DNA from: Heliocybe sulcata
Taxonomy: Eukaryota > Basidiomycota > Agaricomycetes > Gloeophyllales > Gloeophyllaceae
Length of the DNA stretch: 64,000 nucleotides
Direction: 5' to 3'
Assembly: GCA_004369045.1 (NCBI GenBank)
Contig: ML213526.1
Location: forward strand, 192,382 to 256,381
Shown here: piece after piece, positions 5,862-51,961 of the stretch
How positions within the stretch are numbered: position 1 is the stretch's first letter
How the letters are laid out: each line of letters starts with the position of its first letter
Made by a program: the position numbers and the translations under genes
The notes under the pieces: generated by a model
What the model saw: the letters and a program-made list of their open reading frames with translations, nothing else
Told to the model about the DNA's origin: nothing
Database searches by the model: none

Positions 5862-8800
5862 ATGCACATCACTCCCGTGGCGGGCGTCGCCTCTATCGAC
5901 GTGCTCGATGCTCCGCAAGTTATCCTCGACGACGGGAGATGGTCGTGGGTGACGATCTCCGCGAAGATTAAGCAGTGGTGCGTACCCACACCCACCGGAC
6001 TGTTTACCAGGAGCTTGGGCTTATACAGTCGTGCTTCGCAGTATCTGGAAGGATACGTTGGCGTTTCCATCGTATCTCGCTGTGGCGTCGTTGGCTGTAT
6101 TGGTGATCCATCTCATCGTCGCGTCAGGGGTGTTCCAAAAGTTGTATCGCCGGGTCAGGCCGGCGAAAGCGACAGAGGCTGAAGAGGAAGAGGAGGCGGA
6201 TGAGCAGGAGCAGGAGACGCAGCCGGTGGTCCCGCCTAGCGGACTGGGCCAGGAATTCAAGGAGCACGTTCGCAGCCACGGGGGGCTTACTATCTATCTG
6301 TTCAAGGTCGCGCGACTGGTTCTCACTCTCGCCCTGCTGGGTTTCTCTGTCGTCACTCTCATCCTCGAAGAAAAGCAAGACGCTAGCAAGGATAGCATCG
6401 ACGTCTTTGGCAAACACTGGGGCAAAAAGCCGAAGCACAAGCATTCCCCCGGCGAGGCTATCTTCACGCCTCTGGAGTGGCTGCAGTTCGCGCTCTGCAT
6501 GACGTTTGTGAGTGCGATTGCGCTCTCATCGAGGATCCACTTTGTCTGATGCGAGGCGCGCAGGTGTACACGTCGATCCTCGGCTTTGTCTCTGTCTCTG
6601 CGAAACCGCGATGGGCATCTGTGGCGAACTTCCACATGGTTCTGATCTTGCTGTTCACCGCTGGCGTTTACACGTATCGTGATCTGTTCCCTCTTGCGAC
6701 CTTTACTCTTGACCCGATGGATCTGCACGATGGGTGGCTGCTTTGGGTGAAGCTTGCGCTGGTGTTCTTGTCGGGCGTCGTGATTCCATTGGTGATCCCG
6801 TGCCGATACGTCCCCTTCGACCCCAAGGTATGTTCTCGCTCTCAACTGCAGGATCGCAACCAACACTCCATATCTAGGACCCGCAACCCGTCAACCCTGA
6901 GCAAACCGCGTCCATCCTCTCCCTCGCGGTCTACAGCTTCCTCGACCCTGTCGTGCTCAAAGCGTACCGCCAGCCCCACCTGTCCCACACCGACTTGCCT
7001 CCGCTTGCCGACTATGACTTTGGAAAGAACCTCGTCAAGCGCAGCTTCAAGCACCTCGATACGTTCTCAGGCGGAAAAGGCGATTACTTGTTCTGGGGCC
7101 TCATGCGGGTCTTCAGGCGAGAATACCTCATCCTCGCCGGGCTCATTATCACCCGGGTGGTCGGGAACATGCTCTCGCCGCTCGCGATTAACCGGCTTCT
7201 CGCGTTCATGCAGAACGGGCTGGAGAACGCGGTCGTGCGTCCGTGGCTGTGGATCTTGTTCCTGTTCTTGGGCCCTGTGATCAGTGCGATCGCGATCCAG
7301 TACTATATCTTGATCAACACGGGCACGCTTGTGAGGACGGAGGGCATCATTACGCAGTTAGTGTTCGAGCATGCGTTGAGAGTCCGGATGAAGGCGGAGA
7401 CTGCGGGCGGGGAGGCGAAGACTACTGCGGATAACACTGCTGTTGCGACTCCGGAGACGGCTTCTATTCATGAGGCCAGTCCCGGTGGGAGCGATGGGAG
7501 CGAGGACGAGACTGCTAGGGATCCGAGTACGTCTGGAGAGTCCCAGCCGAAGGGCAAGGGCAAGGACGCGAAGAAGCCCGAGGTCACGCCGGCTGTCGCC
7601 GCTGCCGTGCAGGCGAAGGCGAGCAACCTCGTTGGAAAGATCAACAACTTGGTCACCACGGATCTGGGCAACGTCGTCGACGGCCGGGACTTCCTTTTTG
7701 TGGCGCTGTACGGCCCGTTGCAGGTGATCCTGTGTATGGCGTTCTTGTATGTACTGCTGGGCTGGAGCTCGTTCGTGGGCCTGGTTGTTATGATCGCGCT
7801 GGCGCCCGTGCCGGGGTACATCGCGAAGCTGCTGCAGACCGTGCAGGCGGAGCGGATGAAAAAGACGGATGCGCGCGTGGAGACGGTTACGGAGACGATG
7901 AATGTGCTGCGCATGATCAAGCTGTTCGGGTGGGAGCGCAAGATGAGCGAGCGGCTGTCGGAGAAGAGGGAGGAGGAGCTCAAGTTGCTGTGGAAGCGCC
8001 AACTGCTGGGGCTGCTGAACGGGAATATCAACTATATTATTCCGGTGGCGCATATGATTGCGACGTTCGTGACGTATACGCTCGTGATGAAGCAGGAGCT
8101 GAGCGCGGCGATTGTGTTCTCGGCGATGGCGCTGTTCGATCTGCTGCGGGACCAGCTGTACACGATCTTCTTCATGATCCCGATGTTCATCCAGGCGAAG
8201 GTGTCGCTCGATCGTGTGGATGAGTTTTTGAAGAAGACGGAGCTGTTGGATTCGTTCTCGGGCGAGGCGCCGGTGCTCGCGGCGATGTCGGTCCCGCCTA
8301 ATGAAGACGGGGAGGCGATCGGGTTCAGGGACGCGACGTTCTCGTGGTCGGCGGAGGAGGCGAGCGGGGCGCTGACGCCGTCGAAGAGGAGCTTCAGGCT
8401 GCGGATCGAGGGGGACCTGCTGTTCAAGCGCGGGTGCATCAATTTGGTGATTGGGCCGACTGGGTCGGGGAAGACGTCGCTTCTGATGGCGCTGCTGGGG
8501 GAGATGCATTTTGTGCCGTCTGGGCCGGGGTCGTGGTTTGGGCTGCCGAGGGGAGGCGGGGTTGCGTATGCTGCGCAGGAGTCGTGGGTCCAGAATGAGA
8601 CGATTAGGGAGAATATCTTGTTTGGGGCGCCGTACGACGAGGAGCGGTACAAGAACGTTATCTACCAGTGTGCGCTTACGCGCGATCTCACGCTGTTTGA
8701 CGCTGGGGATCAGACTGAGGTGGGTGAGAAGGGCTTGACGCTGAGCGGCGGGCAAAAGGCTCGGATTACGCTTGCGCGGGCTGTGTACTCGCAGGCGGAG

Positions 8801-30964: not shown

Positions 30965-32219
30965 CCCGGGCTGTAGGAGACTGGAGGACGGAAGGAAGCA
31001 AGCGTGGGAATAATGTGGCTTTACCGCTTCAGGACATGTCGCCGTTAGAGTGTTGAAGTTCAAGCTTCAAGCCTTGTCTTGAACACCAAGCTATAGTATT
31101 CCACTGGCCATGCTCTGGACTTCGTACTGGCACCCACTTTGTGTGTTGAACAGCTCAGCATGAACAGATATATTCTCTGTGGGCGCTGTATAATACCTCC
31201 TGGAGAACACTGGTACGACTACTGTGGCGCTCGTCACATCGTTGATATCGATGAGATTCTACATATACTGTTTGCCTGGCCCAAAAAGCAGCACAAGAAA
31301 CTGGTATTCCTACGCAAACTCACCTCGCGCGACCTTCCGTGCATGCTTTGGGCTGAAGACGCGCAATGCTACGTGTATCGCGTCGCCACCGCTCTCTTCC
31401 ACCAGCAAATTAATTCGTACGTATGCCCTTCTGGACTCTACCTCTACGTCTTTACGAGAGGGGCTATATGTCTTGACAAAGCATGCATGGGACTATACTG
31501 AACGCGAGGCGCCGAGCAGAGGGGGTGTTCCTGTTCTCTGAATATATCCGCCTGCGGCACCTGGACATACCAGAGGACCAGCCGTACTAGCTCCACTCTG
31601 TGCCAGGTCATATCTGCCACTTTCACAGTCGTACTTTGGTCTCGACGTTGGATCCAAGAAGCGCTTCAGATCACTGGTTCCTTCGCTTGATCCATCCAAC
31701 GCGGATATCTTGGTGCCGCAGTGCCATACCTTCTTGGAAGGACCGGTGTATTTCATTCTGAGCCCGCCAAGAGACCTGAAGGTGCTTCATTGGATGCGTG
31801 CATTGGTCCGGACCTCTGGTCCTGTCCTGTACTCCTGGAACCGATACTGCTTGTGAGTTGATCGGTGTATCTATCAGCGTAGATATTGCATGCGGACCTG
31901 AAGCCTTAAGCCTTCACATTTGCAATTACTACTGCTTGAATCTTGTCTGTGTAGGCTGCATCCCGTGCACCGTATTTGTGGCTTGTGGTCTGTGACGTGA
32001 CTGTGATTTGTTGGCACGTGATGGGTTGCCTCGCCAGGCGAGGCATCACCGCGCCCTGCGCCACGTCTCCTTCCACTTCCACCACTACCTTCGCTTCTCC
32101 AGTACATTCTCCCAATTTTAGTGCTGTTTTGCTGGTGGTAGCTGTAGGTATACTGAACGCTCACATTACTACCCTCTCCGATTACTAAAGAACGTGCAAT
32201 TCTGACCGGCTTGGAGGAC
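30965..32219. other. Intergenic region at the left border of the FunK1 cluster
   Basis: From 30965 to about 31795 I see no gene. From about 31795 the sequence matches the region starting near 42808 and belongs to the duplicated FunK1 module. It ends in the promoter of the shortened FunK1 gene. Confidence 0.4.
32015..32020 (+). promoter_or_regulatory. CACGTG box upstream of shortened FunK1 gene, module 1
   Basis: Palindromic E-box 205 bp before ATG 32220, context GGCACGTGATGG. Conserved in the same position in module 2. Confidence 0.5.
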
Positions 32220-33595
32220 ATGGCCACCGCTGTGATTGGAAGGAATATTCCTGAGAGTGACTGTAGCATTGTACGTATAGCCTCACATCACTTGCTTTTC
32301 TCTACGCCCAGCTCACTTTGTATCTGCAGGCTGTTCAGAGCGCGACATGTGCGGCCATGGAAGTCGCGCAAGATCCCTCCCAGTGTGGCACACTTTCCGG
32401 CTATGTGCGGGATAATCGTGAAGGCTGTTATAGCCCCTCCTCGGAACCAGATGATTGGGACTGCAGAGTCGGAAGTCCCGACAAACCTCTCCAGTGGACC
32501 GTCACTCACTGCAGAGATACAATAACCTGGCGTGTCGTGGATAGCGTAAAGGATGGTTGTATTCTGACCTCCACACGCAGGGAGAAGACTCACGAACATG
32601 GCCCGCTCTCGTTTGCGCCTCGAATTGGCAAGGCTGCGCATATCGGACGTACAGAATCGAAGAGAGCTGCTACAAATCTCTCGTCCCATGTCGAGCTCCT
32701 AGAGGCATTGCAGTATGCAGTCACGGGTACGTACCATGCTTTGGCACTGCTTCGCGACAACTAACAACCGTCCAGGGCATCAAAGCATACGTGAACGCGG
32801 CACCAAGGTGCCGAATTTGGCCTTGGTCTGCGTCACGCGTAAAGCCTCGGACTGTCCGATAACGCCATTTCTCAGGGAGAAGAAAAGTATCATAGAGAAT
32901 AATTATCGTACGGTGAGTCTACTATCCTGTAACAACGTTTCTGTCTTTCGTTTTATATTTCGCTGGGCACAGAGTCCTTGTCGATCCTTCCAGCCTTTCA
33001 AAATCCTTGCAGGTATCACTACTAGCAAACACGACTACCTGGACGATCTGGAATGCTTCTTTTGGATCCTCTGCCACCTGGTCTTCATCTTCCAGGCGCC
33101 AGGGAAAACGGAAGCCAACCCGCCCTACTCCTTTCAAGGTTTGCATTCTCGAAAGAAAAGGAGGATGATACAGGCCAAGGACAGTCTCCTTGGAAATCGC
33201 GAACTCGTGGATTACATCTCCAGCGGGATGGGTCACGGAATCGCTGCGTTATTTGGGAGGATGCAACAATTCTTCCTCAATGTCACCGAAGAATCGCGAC
33301 AGGAACTTATTGCGCGGCGTAAAGGCATAACGCTCCGTCAGCTCAAAATGCATGGTCACGACCTGCCGGCACCGCACTTGGGTCTCCCGACCGTCGATGA
33401 AAGTGAGTGCAGAAAAGACCAGTTGGGCCTCTGCTTATGCGCCGTATTGTTGCAGAGTCTTGTAGCGAATGGTTGGGACCAGTAGCATTGCAGCATTACA
33501 CGGCTATCTTGAATATGATAGGCACGTCTATTGAATGGGAAGATGAGCCTATGCAGACATCTCTCCTCAGAATTCAAGAACGGGAACAGGCTTAG
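32220..33595 (+). CDS. Shortened FunK1-derived protein lacking the HRD catalytic motif
   Basis: Five exons (32220-32270, 32330-32726, 32776-32912, 32973-33402, 33456-33595) give 384 aa with all phases consistent. The first exon starts in sequence matching the kinase activation segment (DMATAV). The second keeps TITWRVVDSV, like the N-lobe TTCWRV of the full kinase, and LLEALQYAVTG, like helix E. The third occupies the place of the exon that carries HRD and the DFG-equivalent DMD in the full kinase and has the same intron phases, but neither motif remains. The fourth is well conserved (PFKILAGI, HDYLDDLECFFWIL, GMGHGIAALFGRMQQFF). It should be catalytically inactive. ATG is in perfect context (ATGGCCACC). 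It may be a pseudokinase or a gene in decay with open frame. Confidence 0.65.
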
Positions 33596-35146
33596 GGATG
33601 TTGAATAGAGTGCTGACTGACCATTGCATCATATACTAGTACGCTCTGTTATCTCTCATTCTGCATGTTTTTCGTTGCCCAGGCTTACGCACCCTCTGTT
33701 GAAACAGGGTTAATGCATATTATTGCTCGTTTAGAACCACTGAATCCTCGCCTAGATGCTTTTACTCAGCTTGTTTGCGATGAGGTCGTTGAGAGACCCG
33801 AAGCTGACTTGACATTATCCAATGCATCGTCTGTTCACCAGAAAGGTAAACGAGGAATGCTAGTTGTGATCATCCGCCGACGTGCGAGGGAGGCTTGTGT
33901 GTATCTTGTCTGCGTACGGGATAAAGTTCGTGGCTCTATTTGCTGCTAGGTGATATGGCTTTATAAGTGGCGCCTCCTAGGCCTCTATGCCACAGGGAGA
34001 AAAATGCAAATATTGTATATTGTCTCCGGAGTTTTGCATTGTCGTGAGTCGTCCAACAGTAGAGCATATTCATGCGAGTCGCTTCTAACTTGATCTGTAC
34101 TATAGCTACTAGACTTATGTGCTCTATGGACGTACACACAATCTCAGACAATATAGACCCAGGATCCGGTCAAAGGTCTCAATGTGATGGCACTTCCGTA
34201 CGTAGGCAAGCCTGGTCCAGAATAATAAACAGAGGTACCACTCGTTGGCCTCTGACGGCTAGGAACAAATGCCACAGCACAGGCTTTCGGAATTCGTGCG
34301 TGGTGCAGGGCCTCAGTCGTTGAAAAAGAGCAACAAGCGCCCGATCCAGCCCGAATTTGACCAGGAAGTTCATGCTTGTACAAGAAGAAGAGGGTTAGCA
34401 CAATCTCATCCGATTCTTTGGGCGAGTAGAGGTCGTGTTCTCCCCTAGTATCGTTGGCTGTCATCACGAGACGTGTTGTTGCGGCTGCTGTTGTTTCGCT
34501 GAAGAAAGACTGCGCAGGGCTGGCCTATGCGTTTTACTCTCATTTTTTCGACGACATTCTCATTGATTCGTGAAGAAGCTGTGATAGATGTTATTTTGCA
34601 TCACGGTATACGAGACACCTGGGCATAACATCAAGAGAGTAAGAAGAAGACATCAGTTCTACAATAATGGGAGACCATTAGTGATTACGTTACTCCCCTC
34701 GATACTCTAGTCGTTATGTCTACGGTGCAGCGCGCGAGGTGTGAGGCCTGCGGGCGCATCAGTACTAGTGGCGCGAAAGATTCAGACTGATTCAAACCTG
34801 TTACAGCTGGGTACAAATGGGTTAGGGCTATTGTAAAATGACGGTACAGTACATCCACCTTTAAAGCTTAAAGCTTAAAGTGCGAAGAGAGGCATGCTCC
34901 CTAATGAGTAGAACGCGCTTTGCTTCCGTGAGAAGGAATATACGCGATGTGACATTATCCACGTGACCGCGTTAACCGATTGTCACCGGCGGATAATCAG
35001 TCCCGCCACCCATTGTTCCCTCCATTAGGTATCGAATCCGCGTGTCCTGCATGCTGTGGAAGTTCGAGTTGCTATAAGCGAAACTTTATAACTGTAAGCT
35101 TTTCTCGCGCTCTGCACGCTTTCTTCCTCTAACCACGACGCTCATC
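33596..35146. other. Intergenic region with relic FunK1 C-terminal exon
   Basis: At about 34255-34475 the sequence matches the last exon of the module 2 shortened gene (44645-44884), for example CCACAGCACAGGCTTTC, yet here it lies about 660 bp beyond the stop codon and is no longer attached to a gene. From about 34880 the region matches the promoter of the full FunK1 gene in module 2 almost base for base. No other gene seen. Confidence 0.55.
34970..34975 (+). promoter_or_regulatory. CACGTG box upstream of full-length FunK1 gene, module 1
   Basis: Palindromic E-box 177 bp before ATG 35147, context TCCACGTGACCGCG. Confidence 0.5.
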
Positions 35147-38124
35147 ATGTCCGACGACGAGAACAGCGGTGCATCGACTTCACCTTCCCCAAGGCTGGGC
35201 TCGCGAGTACTGTCTACAGCGCCATCGCTCTCCCACCCAGTAGAAGGACCGCCGCCCGCGACTCCCAGCCCGAAAGGCAGCCCGTCGCCATCGTTAACTC
35301 CAGCGCCTAGGGAGAGTGAGAGTGGTGAGGAGCTGCAAGACCCAGGTGTCGCGTCCCGGAAGCGCGACAAGGGCAAACAGCGTGCCGACGTGCCACGCGA
35401 TCCGTCCGTGGTCGCAGCTCCGGCCTCTGCGGCGCCGTCGCTGGGGACGCCGCCTCCTGCACTAGTAACCGGCGGGAAGGACACACAGGTTCACAATTAT
35501 TCGCACGAAACTTCTCTTCACTCGAGTCGTACGTCGGGAACGACGTTCTCTCACGTCATGCCCGCATCGGCCACCATCGAGAGAGAGGGAAAAGCCACGC
35601 AGGGCCTTCCGACTGCGAGGTCAGACCATCCCCTACGGACGCGTCGCCGTAGCGACGCTGATCTCACAAAGGTCGACTCCCGCCGTGGCGACTTCGGGGC
35701 GTCCACGCTCAATGTGGCCCAGGCTGCTGCCACCATGGCCCCTGTGCCTCCAGACACGTTCTTCGGAACCGAATCTTCCAGAAGACTGGTCTCTGCGCCT
35801 TCTAAACTCATTGCCACGCCCCACAAGTCAGGATCGGAAACGCACAAGGACATGGACCAACCTGATATCGATAAGCTGCAGTATATGTTGTCTCTGGAAC
35901 TCGAGGACTCTTGGGTGAATGGTGGAGAAGCCTTCGTCCCCAATCTGGTGCGAGCTCGTCCGACCATCGCATCGACAGTCCAGGCCGATGCATTCTTGTT
36001 CCACTACGAAGGCTTTGACTCTATTACGAGCACATGGCTTCAGCTGCCTGCTGCACCTAACAGGGAACCCGAGCTCTACGGACCGTTTGTTGTCCATCTT
36101 CGAGCGATACTGAACCACTTCGGGATCAGGACTCGTCAAATCGCCCCTACACACGGTACGCGCATGCAGCACCACGACGTCAACCGAGGGGGAAAGAGGA
36201 ATATCAGCTCGCCCGATATCTCAGTCGTAGGGTTTGGTCCTCTCATGGGCGCACATGCAAGTATCAAGGAGCCGGTGAGGTACTCTCAATGCGTCGCCGT
36301 GATCGAGGTCAAGACGGACGCTAGTATGGAGGCTAAATGGGCTCAGCATCGACTCCAGCTTGCCGTGTACGCTCGGGAATGCTTTGTGCAGCAGCCTAGC
36401 AGGCGTTTCTTCTACGGGGTGCTTCTCAGCCAGAAGACAATCCAGCTGTTTCAGTTCGATCGCGGTGGAGCAGTGTACTCCAAAGCGTACGATATTAACC
36501 GCAATGCAGCCATTTTCGTTCAGATCGTCCTCGTAATATCGACTGAGGACGAAGTTGCGTTGGGTTTCGACAACCATATCTTCTGGGACTCCGAAGGGAA
36601 GTGCTGGTACGACTCCGCAGCGAAGAACGACTTCAAGGCGGGGAGCGAAGTGAAAAGAAACAAGGAGTATGAGGTCGTCTCCAAACGGCCATTCTATCGG
36701 GCTGCCATTCGTGGTCGGGGTACGACGTGCTGGCGTGTCCAGGATAGCGAGAAGAACCAGCTCCTGTTGAAGCTTTCTTGGAGAACGACGACTCGCAAGC
36801 CTGAAGCAGAATTCTTACGCGCTGCTATGAAGGTCAACCTCGAACATGTCGGAACGATGATAGAGACGAAAAATCTCGGCTTGCTTTCGCGTATCCGATG
36901 GGATATACCGCTTGTAGCCGAGAGGGTTGGAGGACGTGACGTTCATGCTACTTTGCGACAGCTAATACTCTCCACAGGAAGTAAGGAACTGTTGAGCATA
37001 GGGATACTACATCGCGACATCAGTGTCAATAACATCGTCTTGGATCGCCGCCGTGACACGACCACCAAGGCAAAGCTCATTGACATGGACATGGCGATCT
37101 TTATCGATCGGGATAAGACCGGAGTCAAGACTGACGTCCGCACGGTGAGCCTGACATCAGCCCATGTCTGGTATAGATAACTCATCTTCTTCGGCATAAC
37201 AGGGTACTCGAGCATTTCAATCCTTGAAGGTGCTTGCCGGCATCGATGAGCACAACCACCTGGACGAGCTCGAATACTGTTTCTGGGTTTTCTGCTTCAT
37301 TATCTTCACGTACGACAAGCCTCGCGTGAAGAATCGCGAGTTCCCTCCCGTTCTGAGCAACTTTCACAGTCTAGAGCCGACGGAGGCTATAGAGGCCAAG
37401 AGGACTGTTCTTGATAGTCCGAGAATGACCAGGTGGATCTCTTCAAACATGGGTCCAGGCATCTTCGCGTTATTTCTGAAGCTTCAAGCGTTCTTCAATT
37501 CTGTAACTGCGGGTACTCTGAACGAAATCGATGCGCGACGGCTTACAGGTCCTGATGCTATGACACAGCGAGTGCTGAGCGACGTGGGCCTGTTTAAGCT
37601 GCCTGAGGTGTCGCAGAAGTGCCACTGCCGAACGTCGATGAAAGTGAGTGGTAATAACATAAACTGAAGTTCTCCTCTCATCTAATACTGTGTCAGGGGA
37701 TTGCAACCAATGGCTACATGTGAAGGCTTTACAGCACTACACGCTTGTTCTGGAGATGGTACGCGAAGCTATTGATCTCAGCAAGAAACATATGCTGGCC
37801 ACTTCCGCTCCTGCAGAGCAGAGCAGGACCGAGAAAGATCGCAAGCATGGGCCCTCGGGATGGGAGTCAGAGACTGACGGTCTCTCGGATGAGGGCTTCT
37901 CAGATGGACCTGACGTTGCTGAGGGAGCTTCCTGGGAGGGGGGCGCTGGGTATGCTGCTCCAGCGGCAGGTGTGACGTCCCGTATTTCTGGACTCAGCAA
38001 CAAGCGTTCAGCTGCCCAGTCCTTTGAGGACGATAAGGAGGAAAAGGTACCTTCGTCGTCGAAAGACCCGGGCACGTCGCGCGCCACGAAGAGACTGAAG
38101 GGATCGCACTCTCGCCGCAAGTAG
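35147..38124 (+). CDS. FunK1 fungal-type protein kinase, damaged copy
   Basis: Exons 35147-37144, 37203-37643 and about 37696-38124 by comparison with the module 2 gene. The N-terminal 200 residues are Ser/Pro-rich and disordered. A FunK1 core follows with LQLAVYARE, TTCWRVQDSEKNQLLLKLSW (beta-3 Lys), GILHRDISVNNIV (catalytic loop), LIDMDMA (DFG equivalent) and HLDELEYCFWVFCF. The C-terminus ends in an NLS-like RATKRLKGSHSRRK. Two defects are visible. Around 36915-36980 about 110 bp, including the hinge to helix E and a splice donor, are missing, and the former intron is read as codons. Near 37610-37630 the frame slips relative to the conserved LPNVDE, so the next splice leads to an early stop. 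Probably inactive or decaying, though the first frame is open for 666 codons. Confidence 0.75.
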
Positions 38125-38465
38125 CGGGGTCAGAGGTCGAGTCGTGCCTTCGTGGAGCCACGGGCAGGTTGCTCCTGCGTTTCCTTTTCATGGTTATCAT
38201 CGCTCATGCAGTGCGCATCTCACAATTTGATTGTAATAACGTATGTATACCGTCGTCGCTGTCTCTTCCATTCAGACATTTGTGCTATTACTACAATCAT
38301 ACGGCATTGTTCTGGCGAGTAAGTAGATGACATGTATTATTTATTGGTTGTACGGTGCTTGTATCTCGAAGTTTTTGATGAATGAGTGCGACCTGTCTGG
38401 CCTATAGCTGTTGGGACTGCGCTTGCGATCCTGGCACGATAGCCAACATTAACTTTTACGGGTCA

Positions 38466-38507
38466 GTCTCCGTCTTGCTTATGCATATGCATAAGCAAGA
38501 CGGAGAC
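38466..38507. repeat. Perfect 42-bp palindrome with no spacer
   Basis: GTCTCCGTCTTGCTTATGCAT is followed at once by its exact reverse complement. It lies about 340 bp after the module 1 kinase stop. Module 2 has only the outer few bases at the matching place (about 48951), so the palindrome arose or was lost after duplication. Confidence 0.95.
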
Positions 38508-38520
38508 GCACAATAGTTGA

Positions 38521-41500
38521 CGCGAACATTCAGCAGTCATGCTAGTGGAGGCACACGATTCTTCATACACCGGTACACTTCGGAATCTCCTTACTGAACA
38601 TTAAGTACTGGACCCCGTCATCGACACTGCTTACTTCCTCGAGCTGCACCGTAAACTGACCACCAACGGCAATACGATTGAAGGAAAACTAATACGCAGC
38701 CTATGCTAGTATCCAATTTTCTAAGACCCTATTTCTTGCACGTCCTAAGCGAGATCCTCGCGACTGTAACATTGTTGTGCTGTTGACCTACAACCGCGTA
38801 ATGTATAACCAATTTGGGGTCGACGGGAATTGCGACCACAGTTTCATGCTATGGCAGACTTCCGGGCGAGAGGTAGGCCAAAGGGGGTGACAAGCAACCA
38901 CAGATCATCTGGAAACAACGACACGCGTGTGACAATGTGATGCGCCGTTGAAGCGGCGGTCTGACCGAAATTATGAGATCGACTGGGAGGAATGACTAGT
39001 AAACGAGAGAGAGAGCTTACATAATAATGAAGCCTGCCAACATCCGACGATCAGCGTCGTACGAAGCACCGTCCAGACGCAGACCAGCGCGCACTCTAAT
39101 ATATTGGAGCGATCGGCCCGTGACGGTGTCCAGCACGAGGGATGACGAGGGCTTGCATTGAAAGAACGACCAGAGTTGGAAACTGTGAAACGCTGTCAAA
39201 ACGACTGTGCGATGAAATTTAGGAGACGGCTGAGAGTTCGAGCAGTGGATGGGGAGGTAACTTACAAAACAATCAGGTCTAGCCTGCGTCCGATGCCCAG
39301 CGTCGTAAGATAAACGGTCCAGACAGTGTTTAATCCAGGGCATCCAGGCCGAGTAATGAAGTGATCTGATCGGCGATAAGCGGCTGGCACAATGAATATC
39401 AAGGCTCGCCTTGAGATGGCTGGTATCGTGAGGTATCGTTGGAGAGGGTATAGGCCGCAATAGGACAGACAAGACAAAGAAGAGCGAAGAATGAGCAGAG
39501 ACAAAGAGCAAGAAACCACAAGAGCAGAGAGCAAAGAATGAGAGCAAAAAACCCAAAACGCAGATAGCAAAGAACGAGGGCGAATGGCTATCGGAACAGC
39601 GGGGAGAGTCCAGCTCGGTGAAAACGAGCGGTTCGGCATTTATTAGAGTCGCCGCTGCCGCGACTGAAGGAACGGACACTGTATACAGCTGCGTCAATTT
39701 GGACGAGCGCATTCAATAAGAACAGGCTTGCGGTGCATGAAGCGAGCAGCTCCCTTCTTGCAGAGCAATTGAGAAAAATTGCAAATTTCAACGAGTGTGT
39801 GCGTCCGGATGTAGCACTTAAGCTGTTCACTGGACTTCACCGATGTAGGGGCGGGGAGTACCTTGTGCGGACGGGGTGCCGAGCTGGACAGGAACAAGCA
39901 TCGTAGCCCTTCGTCTCCGGACCGTGGAAGAAAAGGTCTTCCGCAACGGCTTCGGGGTTTTGGCCAGTACCGGTAGACATAGCGGGCTTCCTTCCCTTGA
40001 CGTTCTCCTTACCAAGGAAGCTGGATGGCTGACACTCGCCATTCGGAAGAGTGATTGAGGAATCCTCCGTTATCTTGCGCAGCGGGCGACGAGCAGGGTG
40101 CCGACGTCCTGCATAGACCTTGGCTGGTGTCCCCAGTTTATCCCGGATGGCGTCGTAGGAAAGAGCATTGTTCTTAGCCACCTGGGTCGCCGGGAGTACC
40201 TCATCCTCTTCAACACTTTACGGATGCTCATCGCTGTCGGCGTCAGCCAACTAGTACCTACATATCAGGAATCCTTGGCATCAACGGGCATGAAGCACTC
40301 GTACGGTCACGACAAGATCCGGCACCTCACTCATAGGGCTTATAGCACCTTCCTCACCCTTCTCCGTCGTCCCCGATAAGCTTTGTCCTTCCTGAACATC
40401 GTTCGCCTCTTGCTTGGGTTCTTCCACGTCATCATCCCATTTGCTGCCAAATAGGTTCGGACTCCAGCCATCGAGGCCTTCTTCCTGAGGTGGAATCCAG
40501 GTATCGTCTTCCGGATTTTTTCAAATCCTAGTAACTTCCCTCGTCAGTGCTCTCCAAGACGACCAGTGCATCAAGGGGAGCAACGGCATCTACGATGTTG
40601 TCCAGAGAGCGGTCGAGCCTTTCGGAGCAACGCGACGAGTCCAGAACTGCGGGAATGACACAGCCAGAACTAAGCTGAGAAGGGCGGAGATCGTCATGCA
40701 ACACGGCCGACAGCCGCACCATCGCGGTCCAGGGCGCAGGGCAAGGCTGAGCTGTCTCAAGGAGGTGCGCATCAGACTCTTCATTGGCTAAAGGCAGAAT
40801 GCTCATGGTCGCTGCCAAGACCAGGGAAGCAATTTCCACAATGAAGGCCTTAAGGGAAGGCTGGAAAACATTCTCGTCGTGGGACGAGGCCGAGATCCCG
40901 GTTGACGAGACCAGCGAGACGCTTGCAGAAAGAGAAGACTTATTATCGTGCTCCAGGAATGACGAAGATGCCTTGCGAGACCGGTTCCGCGATCTCCAGG
41001 GAGGGAAGCTGGGGGAAGCTGGCCGGGGATGCAGGACTCGACTACGGGGGATCTCCAACACTCGGCGGAAGCCCTGGGCTCGAGGGACTGTTCCAGCTAC
41101 AGCCGCCTGGTCTTGAACGGAGAGCGGAGTACGCTGGGCAGATTGATGACTTTACATCTCAGGGACCGATCATGCGGTTACAAGCCTAGCAAAACAGGGA
41201 CCGAACTCGCTGGAATTCATCCGTACCATATTATCCTGAGGACCTACGCAACCAAAAGCCGTTCCCGGAGATGGAGGTGGTGAGCTGACCAGTTTCAGTG
41301 CACTAAGCGTTCATTTGATTGGCAGGTTTTCAGGACAGATGTCGCAGTTACACAACGCCGCGCCACTGAAGCATTGTTGAACGCGCTGGCACGCCCTGTG
41401 CTCGTCAAGCTTCATGCATTTCCCCTTCTTCGCTTCTGAGAACCCCTCGCCAAGGCTGACATATGCCTGTTGATTGACCTCTTCCTCAGGAGCCAGGGAA

Positions 41501-42807
41501 AGAAGGGAAGTAATAGTGATAGACGAAGCAGAGACCAGTAGTTCTTCAGCGTTGTCCTCCGCAGAAGAACGAAGCACCGGACGCCCAGGAGAAGAGCTGA
41601 GAGGATTCGGACAAAGATACATCAGTAGAAATAAAATAGTAACCGACCTTGGCAACATCGACTGAGCTCAGAACATGCCCACTGGGTCCATGTTCCCGCG
41701 CCGATTACTTGTCCCAATCCTTCAACCCAAAGCATGGCCTCTGCAAGGACGAGGCAGGAAGCGCCTTGCGCCCGTTCGCGTCATATCAAGGACAAGGGAG
41801 ATGACGCAGAAGAGGTCGTCGACAAGGGGAGGCAGACCAAGGCGGCGGACCAGATGAGTAGTGCAGAGCCGTAGGTGCAGATAACATAGGGTTCATTCTG
41901 AGTATTTGGGCACTCATCTTGCTGATTCTTGGCGATTCACTTGATGACCGACAAGAGGATCCTTCTCCCGGCGTCAAGGCTTTATACCCGTCGCCTGCGG
42001 CTGGCGTCATGGTGGTTTGCATTCCAATGGTCGCTGACCAGAAGAAGAGTTGAGGTAGGCGCGTCCTGTGCGAACCCATATTCTATCGACCTCGTATAAC
42101 TTAAACTGTCGGAAAACATCTCTTTCTATACACAAACCGCGGCATTATGACCCAACATATACGTTATGGATTCATTCCACTGGCGACCCCTGCACTCCTC
42201 TTCGACGGATGTCTCGATCGCCTTGAGAGCAGCCCACCTATACCTGGCTGCTCAGTACTCAGTAATCGGCGACAGCGTCGCATTCCTCTTATGCTTTAAA
42301 CCCACTCCCGAGCCAGGGCCGCCCAGCGCCCACAGCGTCTGCAGCCCGCACTTCATGCTCCATAGCCGCGTAAGCACGAAGACGAGTGTGCTGTCCAGGA
42401 CATTCATTACTAGGAATAAATGCGGGCACCTTGCTGGAGGCGTTATGACCATTTCCAGGAGGTCAAGAAGGAGAGGACGTCGAATACCTACATTTACTTC
42501 CCTCTAGGACCTAGGCTCGTTCAATGGCGCACTATGCCGCCTTATATGCTCTCCGAGATGCACAACTCGTTGGAGCCGATCTGAGACCTTACGACATACG
42601 CCCTACCGTGTTCATTCTCTTCTAAATCTTACGCAGTCAGCGGTAATATGCGAGATCAGCTGCTAGCGCGCAGCGGCACAGGCCACGTTCGCCAGCAAGT
42701 GCCATCCACCACCGTCCGGCCATCTACACACGAGTCTTGCGCCAACTCACTCTCATTGGAACTCTACTGCTGCGCCTCGCCTTTTGCATCGTGTGGTGCA
42801 TGCATAG
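38521..42807. other. Unassigned 4.3-kb spacer between FunK1 modules
   Basis: Present once, between the two modules. No recognised gene. Several minus-strand frames read like fragments of real but unrecognised protein: about 40190-40540 (acidic, with WIPPQEEGLDGWSPNLFG), 39837-40181 (SYDAIRDKLGTPAKVYAG), 40528-41061 and 41311-41658 (Cys-rich end CNCDICPENL). Breaks between them could be introns or decay. I cannot assign a family. Confidence 0.4.
39031..39330 (-). repeat. Imperfect duplicated exon-like unit
   Basis: A unit near 39018-39120 and one near 39262-39360 share AGCCTGC..TCCGA..CAGCGTCGTA..CGGTCCAGAC or close variants. On the minus strand each is followed by a splice donor (GTAAGC, GTAAGT) and the translations share SYDA. 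This looks like an exon plus donor copied within one unassigned gene. Confidence 0.45.
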
Positions 42808-43011
42808 GTAGGTCCGAAAGGCCTCTGACCGTCTATCGTATCCCTAGGATCGATGTTGCTTGTAAGTCGATCGACGCAGCGATAGTGTAGATATTCCACG
42901 CGGAACTGCAGCTTAGCAATTTGCGATTGTCTTTGTCTGTTGTCCGGATCTCGCCAGCCTCGTCAGTGTCCGGCACACCGAGTTTGTGGCTTGTGTGACT
43001 GTGATCCCCGG

Positions 43012-43017
43012 CACGTG
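43012..43017 (+). promoter_or_regulatory. CACGTG box upstream of shortened FunK1 gene, module 2
   Basis: Palindromic E-box 195 bp before ATG 43207, context GGCACGTGATAGG, matching module 1. Confidence 0.5.
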
Positions 43018-43206
43018 ATAGGATGCCTCGCCATTGCCACTCATGCATCATGGGCCACGTCTACTTCCGGACCACTGCCATCTCTGCTCGGCCTACATAT
43101 ACAACCTGATTACCTCTCTCAATTACATCCATTACCGGAGTCCTAGGCTCTCGCATTATTACCGACTCTCGCTAGGAAAACAGGCGCTTCTCTAATCGCC
43201 TTGGAT

Positions 43207-44884
43207 ATGGCCACCACTCTGACTGGGAGCAAGATCGGATTCAGTAGAGCTGATTATGGCGTCGTAAGCATGGTTCAGTTGCAGAGTAGATCAGTTGATT
43301 TTTCTCCTAACCCTGTTCCTTCAGGTTTCTCAGGCTTTCCAATCCATGAAGATGCTCTCAGGGGATCACATATCGCATTACAACTACCTGGACGACCTTG
43401 AGTCTTTCTTTTGGGTCTTCTCGCACATTTCCTTCAGCTTCAACGCTCCTGGAATACCAAGAGAAGAGATGCCATATTTCATACAGAAATGGCATTCCTC
43501 GCGCTTTGAAGAACTTGCGTGGTCCAAGCTCAGCTTTCTAGAGATAAAGCGCATGCACAAGATAATATCAGGAGAGATGGGGGTCACTACACCGATGCTG
43601 TTTGACCAGTTGCAGGATTTCTTCCTTGCGCTTACTGTGAAGGCTCGAGAGCAAGCCCGGAGGAAGCTGGTCAAGGGTCCTGTGTCCTCTAGCGTCCAGA
43701 GACTGCGGGTGGAACGAGGACGTTGCAAACGAGGAAAGCCACTATCGGACACCCCCGTATTGGAGTTGCCCGACGTTGATCCAAGTGAGTGCTAACACGT
43801 TGTCTAGTCTGTTATTTATTGACTGGATCTCGCAGGCCAATGTAATCAGTGGCTAGATGAGGTCACGCTCAAGCATTACGCGTTTATTCTTGATGAAATT
43901 GGTGTCGCCCTCGACTGGGCGGAAGATCTTTCTGCATGGAGAAGACCAACTGCGTCCGGCCACGAAGGAGAGGGTGGCCACGTCGCCCAGAGTCAGTATC
44001 GCGAACGACGTGATACGGTTAGCGCGCTCGACAGGGGAGTTTATGCGGCAGAGCGGTGCTACTCTGATACTGAGGACGCGGACAAGCTCAAACATGGTGC
44101 CGTCCCTCAGACTAAGTCGCTTCAACTATCTGCGGGAAGTGGCATGTTTCCATTTGTCGAGGATAGTCAAAGAAAGCACCCTGCGGCGAAGCATGCTCTG
44201 AGAGAGGAGACTTGTAAGCATCAGCCAGATCTTCTGATTCTGACGTCAGATATGAGTATGACCGTTGATCATGTAGGTTCGAATCAGTGGAAAGCCGGCA
44301 AACGTCCTCGATCATCTCCCAAGCTACTTGAAGCGTTGTGCAATGCTCTTATCGGTAATATATATACTCTGCGACGTCATCGTCACGGCTAACGTCTATC
44401 TCAGGCAGGAAAGACTTTTTAAGAGTCGGCTTGTTAGATCCTACTGCCAAGACTCGCTATGTGACCTCGGATCGTCAGGCGTCTACGGTAATACGCGGTA
44501 GTCCCGCGGATGTGGACATGACAGCGGGGAGCAGTGAACTTAGCACAGCTCCTGCCAGTGCGGTGAGCCTAATAGCGGACCATCACCTGTGATTCAACTT
44601 CTAATTCTCTTAACCCATCTTTCCGCTCCCTTACATCCATTCAGGCTTTGCGGTGGACATCCATGTACGACGTGGTGGTTAACCGAACGTTTGCCTCTGA
44701 AGGCCAGGAAAAAATGCCACAGCACAGGCTTTCCGAACTCATGCGTGGCGCAGCGTCTCAGTCGTCGGAAGAGAGCAAAAAGCGCCCGTTCGAGCCCGAA
44801 TTTTACCAGGGAGCTCATACCTGTCCCGTACTGTACAAACAGAAGAGGAGCAGGACTATCTCATCCGATTCTTTGCGCGAGTAG
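43207..44884 (+). CDS. FunK1 C-lobe-only protein
   Basis: Five exons (43207-43263, 43325-43784, 43836-44354, 44405-44562, 44645-44884) give 477 aa with all phases consistent. The first 19-codon exon starts at the activation segment of the full kinase: DMATTLTGSK lines up with DMAIRLDRTK and both end at the same intron. The second exon is a FunK1 C-lobe (VSQAFQSMKMLSG, HYNYLDDLESFFWVFSHISF). No N-lobe, lysine or HRD remains, so it cannot be a kinase. A new region of about 250 residues follows, with QCNQWLDEVTLKHY conserved with the kinases and then gene-specific sequence, ending in KQKRSRTISSDSLRE. Open frames over five exons argue that it is a working gene, perhaps a scaffold or decoy for the full kinase next door; that role is a guess. 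Confidence 0.65.
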
Positions 44885-45547
44885 AGGTCGGTTTCTCCCA
44901 GGATCGTTAGCTGTCATCACGAGACGTGTTGCTGCTGCTTCTCCAGATTCTTGACATGCATAGGTTCCGTTTCCGCTCTGCAGGATGACTGCTCATAATC
45001 GTCCGAGGTGTCTTACTCTGATTCTTTCGATGATATTCTCAACTTTTCGTTACGAAGCTGTGATAAATATTAATTTGCGTCCTGGAGCCTGAACATAACG
45101 ACAGGAAAGGATCAGCTCTACAGTTATACGAGACTATATCTTACGTCACTCCCCTCGATACTCTAGTTCTACCGTGCAGCGCTAGCTGCGCCTGCGGGCG
45201 CATCGTTATCGGCGCGTACAGATAGGTTAGGTCTATTCTAAAATAATGGTTCGGTACATTTGCCCTTGAAGCTTGAAGTGCAAAGAGCTAGTGTACATGC
45301 GGTTTACCGGGATGAGTAGAACGCGCTTTGCTTCCGTGAGTACGCGGTGTGACATTTTTCACGTGACCACGTCGAACGATTGTCACCGTCGGATAATCAG
45401 TCCCGCCACCCATTGTGCCCTCCATTAGGTTATCGAATCCGCGTGTCCTGCATGCTGTGGAAGTTCGAGTTGCTATAAGCGAAACTTTATAGCTGTAAGC
45501 TTTTCTCGCGCTCTGCACCCTTTCTTGCTTCAACTACGACGCTCATC
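44885..45547 (+). promoter_or_regulatory. Promoter region of full-length FunK1 gene, module 2
   Basis: About 660 bp without a gene. Its right part (45300-45547) matches the module 1 promoter with few differences, including GAACGCGCTTTGCTTCCGTGAG, the CACGTG box, and GTTGCTATAAGCGAAAC before the start. Confidence 0.5.
45360..45365 (+). promoter_or_regulatory. CACGTG box upstream of full-length FunK1 gene, module 2
   Basis: Palindromic E-box 188 bp before ATG 45548, context TTCACGTGACCACG. Confidence 0.5.
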
Positions 45548-48500
45548 ATGTCCGACGACGAGAACAGCAGCGGAGCGTCGACTCAACCTTCCCCAACGTT
45601 GGGCTCGCGAGGACCGTCTATAGCGCCATCGCTCGCCCATCCATCACAGGGATCGCCGCCCGCGACTCCCAGTCCGAAAGGCAGCCCGTCGCCATCGACT
45701 ACGCCGGCGCCTAGGGAGAGTGAGAGTGCTGAGGACTTGTATCAAGACCCAGGTATCGCGTCCCGGAAGCGCGACAAGGGCAAACAGCGTGCCGTCGTGC
45801 CACGCGATCCACCCGTGGTCGCAGCTTCGGCCTCTGCGGTGCTGTCGGTCGAAAGGCCACCTCCTACACAAACAACGGGCGGGGAAGACAAACAGGTTCA
45901 CGATCGTTCCACCCAATCATCTCGTCACTCGATTCGCACATCGGAAACTACCTACTCTCACGTTATGCCCGCATCGGCCACCATCGAGCGAGGGGGAAAA
46001 GCCACTGAAGGCGTTCCTAGGCCACCTCCAACGCGCCGCCATAGCGACACGTATCGCGCAGATTCCGGCCCTCGCCGTCCTGTACGCGAGACGTCGACAG
46101 TTAGCGTCGCTGAGGTTGCTTCCACGATGAAGACGGTGCCTCCAAAGAGTTTCTTTGGAAAGCAACCCTCGAGAGTGCCGGCGTCTGCCCCTGCTGTTGT
46201 GCCCACGCCTTTCAAGGAAAGCTCCGGAACGGCGGGCGCTGTGACTATCGAGAAGCAGCGGGATATCCTCGATGCGGAGCTGAAGAAATCGTGGGTGTTC
46301 GGTGGCTTACGGTTCTTCAGCAATCTCCTGCTTTGTCGTCCAGATATCCCAACGCGGCCCACTGTCGGGGCATTCCTTTCCCAATACGCAGGTTTTGACT
46401 CTGCTACCAGGATGTGGCGAGACCTTCCGAGGTTGGCCACGTCGGAGAACGACCGCATCTACAATCCCTTGGTTGTTCATTTCAATAAGATCTTGGAACA
46501 CTTCGGGTACGCGACTCGCCAGGCTGTCAAGACAGCGCACAGGGCCATGTCCCACGAGGCCGAAAGTCAGGGGGGGAGGAAGAACACCACCATGCCCGAT
46601 ATCTCAGTGCTAGGCTGGGGTCCCCGTATGGGCGAACGCCAAGAGATTCGAAAGAAGTACTCTCATTGCGTCGCCGTAATCGAGGTCAAAACGGAGGAGA
46701 TTATGAAGAAGAATTTGAAGAAACATCAACTACAACTTGCCTCGTACGCTCGGGAGATCTTCGTGCAACAGCCTACGAGACGCTTCGTCTACGGGCTGCT
46801 GGTCAGCGAGCAGACCATCCAGTTGTATCAGTTTGATCGCGGCGGAGTGATTTACTCCTCGAAATACGATATACGAGACGATGCCGAGACATTTGTTCAG
46901 ATCTTCCTTGCTGTGGCAACTGAGGACGAAATCGCCTTGGGTCTGGGCAAGCATATCTTCTGGGCGCCTGACGGCAAGTGCTACTTCGATCCTAAAGGGA
47001 AGATGAATCGCGTCTACGCCGTGGTTACCTCCGAGAAACCCTTCCGACGGGCTGCGATCCGTGGCCGCTGTACGACATGCTGGCGCGTGGAGGACGACCA
47101 GAAGAACCAGTTTTTGCTCAAATTCGCTTGGAGGGCTATGGGCCGCGTGAAGGAGTCCGTGTTCTTAAAGGCCGTGAAGGAGGCAAACCTCCAACACGTC
47201 GGACTGATGGAACGGTCGAGAACCATCGAAACTCTTTACTGCGTTCGATCATACATGCCCCTCATCGCAGTGAACGGTAGAGGTGAGAGGTTTCCGGTAC
47301 CTGATCGGGCGCACCACTGGCTACTTGAGCCGTGGTATGGTCCGACACTGGATCAGTTCGAATCGCCGTTGGAGCTCCTGGAGGGATTCTACGACGCTAT
47401 TACAGGTAAGCCGTGATGTTGTGGTGTTGCTTTGCAAGGGCTAACGCCCTCCCCAGCTAGCAGAGAGCTGCTGAGCATCGGGATATTACACCGAGACATC
47501 AGCATTAGTAACATTGTCTTCGATCGCCGGCCGGATGCAGATACATTCGCGAAACTTATTGACATGGACATGGCGATTCGCCTGGATAGGACGAAAAGTG
47601 GAGTTAAGACTGACGTTCGAACGGTGAGCTTGATATTGGCTCCATGTCCGATGCAGACGGCTTATGTTGTTCTGAACGACAGGGTACACGAGCGTTTCAA
47701 TCTTTGAAGGTGCTTTCCGGTATTGGCCAACACGATCACTTGGACGAACTCGAGTTCCTTTTCTGGGTTTTCTGTTACATCGTCTTCAGTTACGACGCGC
47801 CTGGCAAGTTGAAGAAAAAGCCTGAGACGTGTCTTCAGGGATTCCAATCATCGAAGCCTGCGCAGGCCATAGATGCCAAGAAACTCGTCCTTTGGAATGC
47901 CGAGCTTCCGCGAAAAGTCTCCATTGGTCTGGGCGCGGGCACCCCAGCCCTGTTTCGCAAGCTCCAGTTATTCTTCCTCAAAGTGACCGAGGATACACGG
48001 AAGAAGATTGACTCAAGAGGATACAAAGCAACCAACGACATCTATGAGGAAATAATGGGCGCCGCGGGACTATCAACGGCGCAGGGCCCAGAGTTAGTAT
48101 TACCGAGCGTCAGTGACGGTAAGTGTGAGCTTGGCTGTGGGACTTCCGTGCTTACGTCTGATATTGTCGCAGAGGATACCAATGTATGGCTCAAGAAGGA
48201 AGCTTTACAACACTACCAGCTAGTTCTGAACCTGGTGCGCGAAAGTATCGACCTCACGCGGAGATATATGGATGGGGCTCTTCTCTGGAAGCAGGTCGGC
48301 GCGGATGACGAGAACATGGAAGGAGAAACGAGAGTGGAGGAGCCAAATCTTGACGATCATTCGGACGAGGGCTTCTCGGATGCATCCGACGTCGTTGGGG
48401 AAGCTTCCTGGGAGGGAGAGGCTGGGTATACCGTTCCAGCGGCGGGCGTGACGTCTCATTCTTCGGGATATAGTAACAAGCGCTCTGCCTCACAGTCATT

Positions 48501-48585
48501 TGATGTCGAGGACGACGTATCCATGGAGCCTAGCACGTCGCGCGCCACGAAGAGGGCGAAGGGATCGCACTCTCGACGCAAGTAG
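45548..48585 (+). CDS. FunK1 fungal-type protein kinase, apparently intact
   Basis: Four exons (45548-47405, 47457-47623, 47683-48118, 48173-48585) give 957 aa. About 200 residues of Ser/Pro-rich disorder come first, then the FunK1 N-terminal region and kinase domain: CTTCWRVEDDQKNQFLLKFAW (beta-3 Lys), HWLLEPWYGPTLDQFESPLE (hinge), GILHRDISISNIVF (catalytic Asp and Asn, HRD codons at 47489-47497), LIDMDMA (DFG equivalent), TGTRAFQSLKVL (activation-segment end) and HLDELEFLFWVFCY (helix F Asp). The tail is acidic, Ser-rich and ends in an NLS-like RATKRAKGSHSRRK. FunK1 kinases are expanded in multicellular basidiomycetes and linked to fruiting; their substrates are unknown. Exon 2 holds exactly HRD to activation loop. 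The last intron is 54 nt and also free of stops, so retention would stay in frame. Confidence 0.88.
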
Positions 48586-48980
48586 CGGGATCGTGGCTCT
48601 AATCGTGTCTTCATCGAGCAGCGGGCAGGTTGCTCTTACGTTTCGTTTTCATGGTTATCATGGCTCATGCAGTGCGCATCTCCCAAGTTGGTTGTAATAA
48701 CGTATGTATACCGTTGTCGCTGTCTCCTTCCATTAACGCATTTGTGCTATTACTACAATCATACGGCATTATTCTGGCCAGTAAGTAGATGACATGTATT
48801 ATTTATTGGTTGTACGGTGCTTGTAGAGGTCCTCGATGCATGAATACGATTTATTGATGTGGCTTACAGCTGTTGGCACGGCCGTTATGACCTGCGATGC
48901 TGGTACGGTGGCTAGCGTTAACTTTAAGACTCACTAGTCAGTCTCCGTCTCGCCCATGAGACGACATACACAACAGTTCA

Positions 48981-50112: not shown

Positions 50113-50184
50113 TCGGATATGGTGTAACGGCTAACATTACCGCCTTTCACGCGGTAGCTCGGGGTTCGATTCCCCGTATCCGAG
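50113..50184 (+). tRNA. tRNA-Glu (anticodon UUC)
   Basis: 72-nt cloverleaf. The acceptor stem TCGGATA pairs with TATCCGA, the anticodon stem ACCGC pairs with GCGGT around loop CTTTCAC (anticodon TTC at 50146-50148), and the T arm carries the B box GGTTCGATTCC. The A box reads TGGTGTAACGGC. There is no intron. A short T run follows at about 50211. Confidence 0.97.
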
Positions 50185-51889: not shown

Positions 51890-51961
51890 CTCGGATACGG
51901 GGAATCGAACCCCGAGCTACCGCGTGAAAGGCGGTAATGTTAGCCGTTACACCATATCCGA
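51890..51961 (-). tRNA. tRNA-Glu (anticodon UUC), second copy
   Basis: The reverse complement is identical over all 72 nt to the gene at 50113-50184, in convergent orientation about 1.7 kb away. It is followed on the minus strand by a TTTTT pol III terminator at about 51870. Confidence 0.97.

What the first reader, a model, noticed from the sequence alone, without database searches (positions are those of the whole stretch)
31795..48980. Duplicated two-gene FunK1 module pairing a reduced, non-catalytic kinase derivative with a full kinase
Two modules in the same order and orientation each contain a shortened FunK1-derived gene followed by a full-length FunK1 gene. Both shortened genes still splice into complete proteins although they lack the catalytic loop, while one of the two full-length genes is damaged. 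Keeping the pair together through duplication, with the non-catalytic member preserved, suggests it may have its own role, such as a pseudokinase regulator or decoy. I do not know of a described system of this form.
Basis: partly seen in the sequence, partly recalled or inferred. Interest (0 to 1): 0.7.

Follow-up and report, generated by a model that had tools for sequence, protein, structure and literature searches.

The report
Mismatched kinase fragments beside fungal kinases
Two fungal kinases of the FunK1 family each have a broken-up kinase fragment gene beside them, but the two fragments are built differently and seem to come from different kinase lineages, so this looks like debris of gene shuffling, one piece of which may still be a working non-catalytic protein.

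Summary
The anatomy is largely real. Two head-to-tail units each hold a short FunK1-derived gene (s1, 384 aa; s2, 477 aa) and a long FunK1 gene; both short genes splice open and one long gene (full1) is damaged. The reading that one module was duplicated with its non-catalytic member preserved does not hold as stated. s1 keeps FunK1 exon order with a ruined catalytic exon; s2 has permuted order, C-lobe first. Their C-lobes fall in different lineages (s1+s2 as one clade: AU p 0.039 protein, 0.021 DNA). No other FunK1 locus examined carries such a pair. s2's C-lobe shows purifying selection (omega 0.16-0.19 on all columns); s1's is weaker and depends on the tree; full1 is near 1. So s2 may be a functional C-lobe-only protein, s1 is doubtful, a conserved pair is not supported. 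A wider pattern emerged: in 3 of 3 young FunK1 pairs the C-lobe exon carries far more synonymous change than exon 1 (p 1.3e-7 to 1.7e-18), so these genes are mosaics whose substrate-binding half is older than the rest. Transcripts and related species could not be tested.

The parts
32220..33595 (+). short gene s1: exons 32220-32270, 32330-32726, 32776-32912, 32973-33402, 33456-33595 (384 aa). Leader, possible N-lobe remnant plus alphaE-like end, ruined catalytic-loop exon, C-lobe, short tail
   Evidence: acceptor of intron 1 is ambiguous (32311, 32329 or 32338)
35147..38124 (+). long gene full1 (FunK1): exons 35147-37144, 37203-37643 (or to 37647/37650), 37697-38124; damaged by a hinge/alphaD deletion of about 129 nt and a possible frame shift
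34243..34444 (+). module 1 stretch homologous to the last exon of s2 (about 85%), interrupted by a stop and a frame shift; not part of s1
43207..44884 (+). short gene s2: exons 43207-43263, 43325-43784, 43836-44354, 44405-44562, 44645-44884 (477 aa). Leader, C-lobe, tail fused to an alphaE-like end, ruined catalytic-loop exon, last exon: FunK1 exons in permuted order
45548..48585 (+). long gene full2 (FunK1, 957 aa): exons 45548-47405, 47457-47623, 47683-48118, 48173-48585; open throughout, PF17667 E 1.3e-70
31791..32248 (+). promoter and first exon of s1, homologous to 42797-43235 (62%)
42797..43235 (+). promoter and first exon of s2
47823..48085 (+). divergent tract in the C-lobe exon of full2: 56% identity to paralog C16 against 88% outside it

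Best explanation
The locus is a tandem duplicate inside a large FunK1 family that changes by partial duplication and exchange of segments. The short genes are two different leftovers of that process. s1 is a FunK1 gene that lost its N-terminal domain and catalytic residues. s2 is a chimera in which the C-lobe and tail of one copy read into the alphaE/catalytic-loop exon of another. They share an older promoter and leader exon, hence the look of a duplicated module. Shown: the anatomy, intron phases, loss of HRD and D-x-D, no such pair at the other FunK1 loci examined, and purifying selection on s2's C-lobe averaged over its branch. Inferred: that s2 is still translated and acts through its C-lobe (the substrate-docking half of a kinase, recalled) as a non-catalytic binding protein, while s1 and full1 are decaying.
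For: Exon length/end phase: full2 1858/1, 167/0, 436/1, 413; s1 51/0, 397/1, 137/0, 430/1, 140; s2 57/0, 460/1, 519/1, 158/0, 240. So s1 = leader-1-2-3-4 and s2 = leader-3-4/1-2-last. C-lobe tree: s1 with full1/full2/C16 (94/95), s2 with C17 (72/85); s1+s2 as one clade AU p 0.039, 0.021 on DNA. Codon model: omega s2 0.185 (2dlnL 11.98 against omega=1), s1 0.39 (5.13), full1 0.845 (0.08; full1 differs from the one-ratio background, 6.12); on a six-gene tree 0.171, 0.387, 0.756, and 0 of 60 simulations each for s1 and s2 under omega=1 reached the observed value. Changes at sites where full1, full2 and C16 agree are rarer at codon position 2 than 3: s1 12/78 against 15/37, s2 22/81 against 20/40.
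Against: Similarity outside the C-lobe is weak: s2 against full2 z 3.8 (4 of 500 shuffles as good), s1 N-lobe part z 1.8 (27 of 500), s2's last exon against the full2 tail z 0.6 (127 of 500), so the parsing rests largely on intron phase. Neither tree group of s1 or s2 is strongly supported, and putting s2 into the s1/full1/full2/C16 clade is not rejected (AU p 0.119). Synonymous sites are near saturation, and omega averages over times when the ancestors may have been full kinases. Splice sites were chosen by eye.
Confidence: 0.6

Rival explanations
1. A true two-gene module: the short protein is a regulator or decoy of its neighbouring kinase, duplicated with it.
For: Same order and orientation, homologous short-gene promoters, both frames open, s2 constrained.
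Against: Different exon order and C-lobe grouping; the last exon of s2 is broken in module 1; no short gene at the other FunK1 loci fetched, including the 13 kb upstream of the stretch holding the closest paralog C16.
Confidence: 0.15
2. Both short genes are plain pseudogenes, open by chance and by choice of splice sites.
For: s1 outside the C-lobe has codon usage in the non-coding range; omega of s1 does not differ from 1 when s1 and s2 are forced together; the neighbour full1 decays.
Against: P(open) 0.006 or less at 0.15 changes/site without indels; s2's omega rejects 1 in all four settings; s2 exon 3 is open over 519 nt where the other two forward frames hold 7 and 13 stops.
Confidence: 0.22
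3. The short genes are silent donors of C-lobe sequence for neighbouring kinases (cassette conversion).
For: FunK1 C-lobe exons look mosaic; the short genes are centred on that exon.
Against: The longest exact match of s1 or s2 to any of 7 long genes tested is 18 bases (s1-full1) and 16 bases (s2-C17). Searches with the variable tracts of full2, C16 and C15a did not find s1 or s2; best other matches were the pair partners at 67-71%, and for C15a also 109 bases of C14 at 75%.
Confidence: 0.03

Closest known systems
FunK1 / Pkinase_fungal (PF17667) kinases
   Same: Full2 and the first exon of full1 match PF17667 far over the cut-off (E 1.3e-70, 2.2e-50), with HRDIS and D-x-D; 114 PF17667 pieces in this genome. 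Lineage-specific expansion and non-syntenic placement are described for Paracoccidioides (PMC3203195, passages seen, one in the abstract).
   Different: s1 and s2 miss the curated cut-off (23.7 and 15.4 against 24.1 bits) and match only the C-terminal end of the model. The passages on FunK1 or Pkinase_fungal that I saw in six papers mention no stand-alone C-lobe genes and no mosaic C-lobes.
Pseudokinases
   Same: Catalytic motifs lost, C-lobe kept.
   Different: No N-lobe sequence was recognised in s2, and its exon order is permuted; s1's N-lobe remnant is not significant. A whole kinase fold is not shown.
Kinase duplicates whose partner lost its kinase domain (Bub1/Mad3/BubR1, passage in PMC3591445)
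   Same: A duplicate without kinase activity beside a full kinase lineage.
   Different: There the loss is reported to have happened repeatedly after separate duplications; here conservation could not be tested and the two cases in the window are not equivalent.

Membership tests
FunK1 kinase (full2) | match to PF17667 over the curated cut-off | tested here: met
   238.5 bits against 24.1
FunK1 kinase (full2) | HRD catalytic loop with the FunK1 serine, and D-x-D in place of DFG | tested here: met
   HRDISISN and IDMDMA; a serine at active-site position 8 is stated for FunK1 in PMC3203195 (passage); I take the S of HRDIS for it, numbering not checked; the D-x-D as DFG equivalent is my reading
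FunK1 kinase (s1, s2) | match to PF17667 over the curated cut-off | tested here: not met
   23.7 and 15.4 bits against 24.1
Pseudokinase (s1, s2) | catalytic residues lost | tested here: met
Pseudokinase (s1, s2) | kinase fold with both lobes | tested here: inconclusive
   s1: z 1.8; s2: none seen; neither short protein was folded; the one structure run (full2 core with full1) had mean pLDDT 37 and was not used
Conserved two-gene module | equivalent short genes in both units | tested here: not met
   different exon order; AU p 0.039 and 0.021 against s1+s2
Conserved two-gene module | pair present in related species | not testable with these tools
   no relatives of this genome are held
Expressed gene (s1, s2) | spliced transcript | not testable with these tools
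   no RNA data

The most novel reading that the evidence does not exclude
FunK1 kinases of this fungus carry a specificity cassette: the C-lobe exon (after the activation loop, where substrates dock) keeps old, divergent versions while the rest of the gene, flanks included, is homogenised between dispersed copies, as in recognition gene families. s2 would then be a free-standing specificity lobe, a soluble decoy or competitor with no kinase activity.
Probability: 0.2. Interest if true: 0.7.

Novelty: new variant of a known kind. Interest (0 to 1): 0.42.

Why it matters
FunK1 is greatly expanded in fungi such as the mushroom Coprinopsis and its function was not established (PMC3591445 passage, 2013). 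If the C-lobe exon is an old, recombining specificity region, that points to recognition (self/non-self or anti-parasite) rather than housekeeping signalling. It also gives a direct test: swap C-lobes and look for changed partners. C-lobe-only genes such as s2 would be natural competitors to study it with.

Tried and rejected
Duplicated module as such: not upheld on exon order and C-lobe grouping. Short genes as conversion donors: longest exact matches 18 and 16 bases; tract searches found no donor. Diversifying selection as the sole cause of C-lobe divergence: synonymous sites are raised as well. Full1 frame shift as decisive damage: can be avoided by a neighbouring donor. s1 promoter as a probe for further copies: found only itself; it missed the known 62% copy in module 2, so it says nothing about rarity and is not used. 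Structure of the full2 core: mean pLDDT 37, not used, no fold search run. PDB by sequence for full2 exon 1: best E 0.14 to a phage capsid protein, not used. Pfam on three unassigned reading frames between the modules: nothing at E 1. Topology conflict for C15a/C15b in the C-lobe: suggestive only (AU p 0.065 protein, 0.27 DNA); full2+C16 not rejected (0.495) and C26e+C28 upheld there, so the mosaic claim rests on dS, not on trees. First global MAFFT of the short regions misplaced the 5' part, local alignment used instead. C26b was left out of the second tree as a long branch. Exon models had wrong acceptors, replaced.
Full report
WHAT IS THERE. The window is C24:192382-256381 of a 31.6 Mb genome in 51 contigs; from its FunK1 genes and introns I take it for a basidiomycete, which no call identified. 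Gene models, all on +: s1 32220-33595, full1 35147-38124, s2 43207-44884, full2 45548-48585. Full2 is an open FunK1 gene of 957 aa (PF17667, 238.5 bits against a cut-off of 24.1); s1 (23.7) and s2 (15.4) touch only the C-terminal end of that model, below the cut-off.

DUPLICATION. Units 1 and 2 are homologous in the short-gene promoter plus leader exon (62%), the short-to-long interval (73%), and the long gene with its flanks. Between full1 and full2 the proximal 5' flank and first 100 codons are 83-98% identical (dS 0.15 over 98 codons), the core falls to 47-77%, and the 3' flank rises again to 78-94%. Full2's nearest relative is C16 on another contig (84% aa over residues 1-680), which shares the proximal 5' flank but has no short gene in the 10 kb stretch holding it nor in the 10 kb before that.

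THE SHORT GENES ARE NOT EQUIVALENT. The introns flanking the FunK1 catalytic exon have phases 1 and 0, and the intron after the C-lobe phase 1. s1 reads leader, remnant ending like alphaE, ruined catalytic exon, C-lobe, tail: normal order. s2 reads leader, C-lobe, tail fused to an alphaE-like end, ruined catalytic exon, last exon: permuted. HRD and D-x-D, present in all 11 long loci read there (one of them, C15b, has an in-frame stop in that exon), are gone in both. Similarity outside the C-lobe is weak: s2 against full2 z 3.8, s1 against full2 z 1.8, s2's last exon against the full2 tail z 0.6, the two leaders z 3.9. C-lobe trees put s1 with full1/full2/C16 (94/95) and s2 beside C17 (72/85); s1+s2 as one clade has AU p 0.039 on protein and 0.021 on DNA; s2 inside the s1 group is not rejected (0.119). 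The stretch of module 1 homologous to s2's last exon is broken by a stop and a frame shift.

SELECTION. In a branch-wise codon model of the C-lobe exon (8 genes, 144 columns), omega was 0.185 for s2, 0.39 for s1 and 0.845 for damaged full1; s1 and s2 do not differ from the one-ratio background (2dlnL 0.92, 0.91), full1 does (6.12). Over four settings of tree and columns with six genes, s2 stayed at 0.02-0.17 and rejected 1 each time (12.3-37.2); s1 ranged 0.39-0.65, rejecting 1 on the unforced tree with all columns (6.05), borderline with fewer (3.83), and not with s1+s2 forced (1.73, 0.38); full1 never rejected 1. In 60 simulations each under omega=1 (unforced tree, all columns), none reached the observed value for s1 or s2. 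Among forward frames, codon usage favours the coding frame for s2 exons 2, 3 and 5 and the C-lobe exon of s1, but s2 exon 4 and s1 exons 2, 3 and 5 score like non-coding stretches. Neutral drift of 0.15 changes per site would leave s1 open in 0.6% and s2 in 0.15% of 2000 runs each; the short-gene promoters differ at 141 of 429 ungapped columns, by my Jukes-Cantor estimate about 0.2 changes per site on each side. The omegas average over the whole branch, so they cannot date the constraint.

IS THE PAIR RECURRENT? Of the 20 ten-kb stretches fetched, 16 hold matches to full2 at E<1e-3; s1 and s2 match in 11 of the 20, the same 11, always within the C-lobe or tail of a long FunK1 gene. Genome-wide, s1 and s2 give 21 matches each, outside the window 12 and 11: those same C-lobes plus, for s1, one short piece on C1 with a stop. 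These searches score only the best candidates, and most of the 114 PF17667 pieces, for example those on C6, C35, C29, C27 and C43, lie in stretches I did not fetch, so absence is shown only at the sensitivity.

A WIDER PATTERN. Of eight FunK1 pairs compared exon by exon, three are young (exon 1 dS under 0.3), and in all three the C-lobe exon carries far more synonymous change than exon 1: full2-C16 64.5/104.7 sites against 80.0/462.4 (p 1.7e-18), C15a-C15b 55.9/101.3 against 65.3/420.8 (p 1.5e-15), C26e-C28 36.2/91.0 against 59.0/424.9 (p 1.3e-7). The tails return to dS 0.19-0.37; the catalytic exon is low in two pairs (0.25, 0.19) but raised in full2-C16 (0.74). Of the five older pairs, C12-C3 is somewhat raised (0.81 against 0.37-0.60), C26c-C19 is not (0.57 against 0.41-0.61), and C15a-C14, C12-C19 and C17-full2 are too diverged to tell. 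At DNA level all six pairs tested (the three young ones, C12-C3, C26c-C19 and full1-full2) have a divergent tract at the C-lobe (50-68% inside, 74-93% outside; z 9-17 against a maximum of 6.1 or less in 100 permutations each). Raised synonymous change with amino-acid constraint points to segments of different age, that is partial gene conversion or exchange, rather than to selection alone. Trees do not prove it: on the C-lobe, C15a+C15b is not clearly rejected (AU p 0.065), full2+C16 is not rejected, and C26e+C28 is upheld. The variable tracts of full2, C16 and C15a match nothing better in the genome than their pair partners (67-71%), save 109 bases of C14 at 75% for C15a, so donors are lost, elsewhere, or the rest of the gene was homogenised instead. 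The pairs were chosen because they are close, not at random.

MECHANISM. Most likely, repeated partial duplication and exchange in FunK1 arrays left s1 and s2 as different fragments. s2 may persist as a protein that keeps the docking half of a kinase and so could bind substrates or partners of FunK1 kinases without phosphorylating them. That this half docks substrates in kinases is recalled, not tested here.

LITERATURE. Eight searches. Passages, not whole texts, were seen in PMC8955403, PMC3203195, PMC6145500, PMC5852033, PMC5289972, PMC3937382, PMC3591445 and PMC6001611. None of these passages describes C-lobe-only FunK1 genes or mosaic C-lobes; the original Coprinopsis description was not seen. 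Nothing wider is claimed about what is in print.

Noticed in passing
window 47683-48118; L022:5594-6028; L027:5994-6437; L028:4250-3807; L035:3807-3412; L037:5626-6021: C-lobe exons of FunK1 genes are about 3- to 7-fold more diverged at synonymous sites (corrected) than exon 1 of the same genes in three young pairs.
   Followed up: yes
window 46595-46760 (full2) and matching places in 9 other FunK1 N parts: The N-terminal half carries PD-x(n)-(I/V)E(V/I)K followed by a QLAxYAxE-like stretch, as in PD-(D/E)XK nuclease folds (recalled); 10 of 17 N parts scanned matched the pattern, 7 did not. A nuclease-like plus kinase layout is reported for other proteins (REase with kinase, PMC5289972 passage). 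The structure run was too poor to test it.
   Followed up: partly
L027:3500-4100 and 6710-7210 against L028: The two C15 FunK1 genes have 97-100% identical flanks around a core that falls to 58%, a sign of recent homogenisation of the ends.
   Followed up: partly
L028:4488-4303: The C15b FunK1 gene has an in-frame stop in its catalytic exon after the D-x-D motif, so it may be a pseudogene.
   Followed up: no
window 33392-33409 and 37633-37650: An 18-base exact match between s1 and full1 at the end of the C-lobe exon, where full1's frame is shifted; possible small exchange between neighbours.
   Followed up: no
window 50113-50184 and 51890-51961: Two tRNA-Glu genes (TTC) facing each other, arms 100% complementary and 1.7 kb apart.
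   Followed up: no
G000 C6:10375-162737 and C26:252063-362397: FunK1 pieces are clustered on a few contigs, some near contig ends (for example C3:6505, C17:22549).
   Followed up: no
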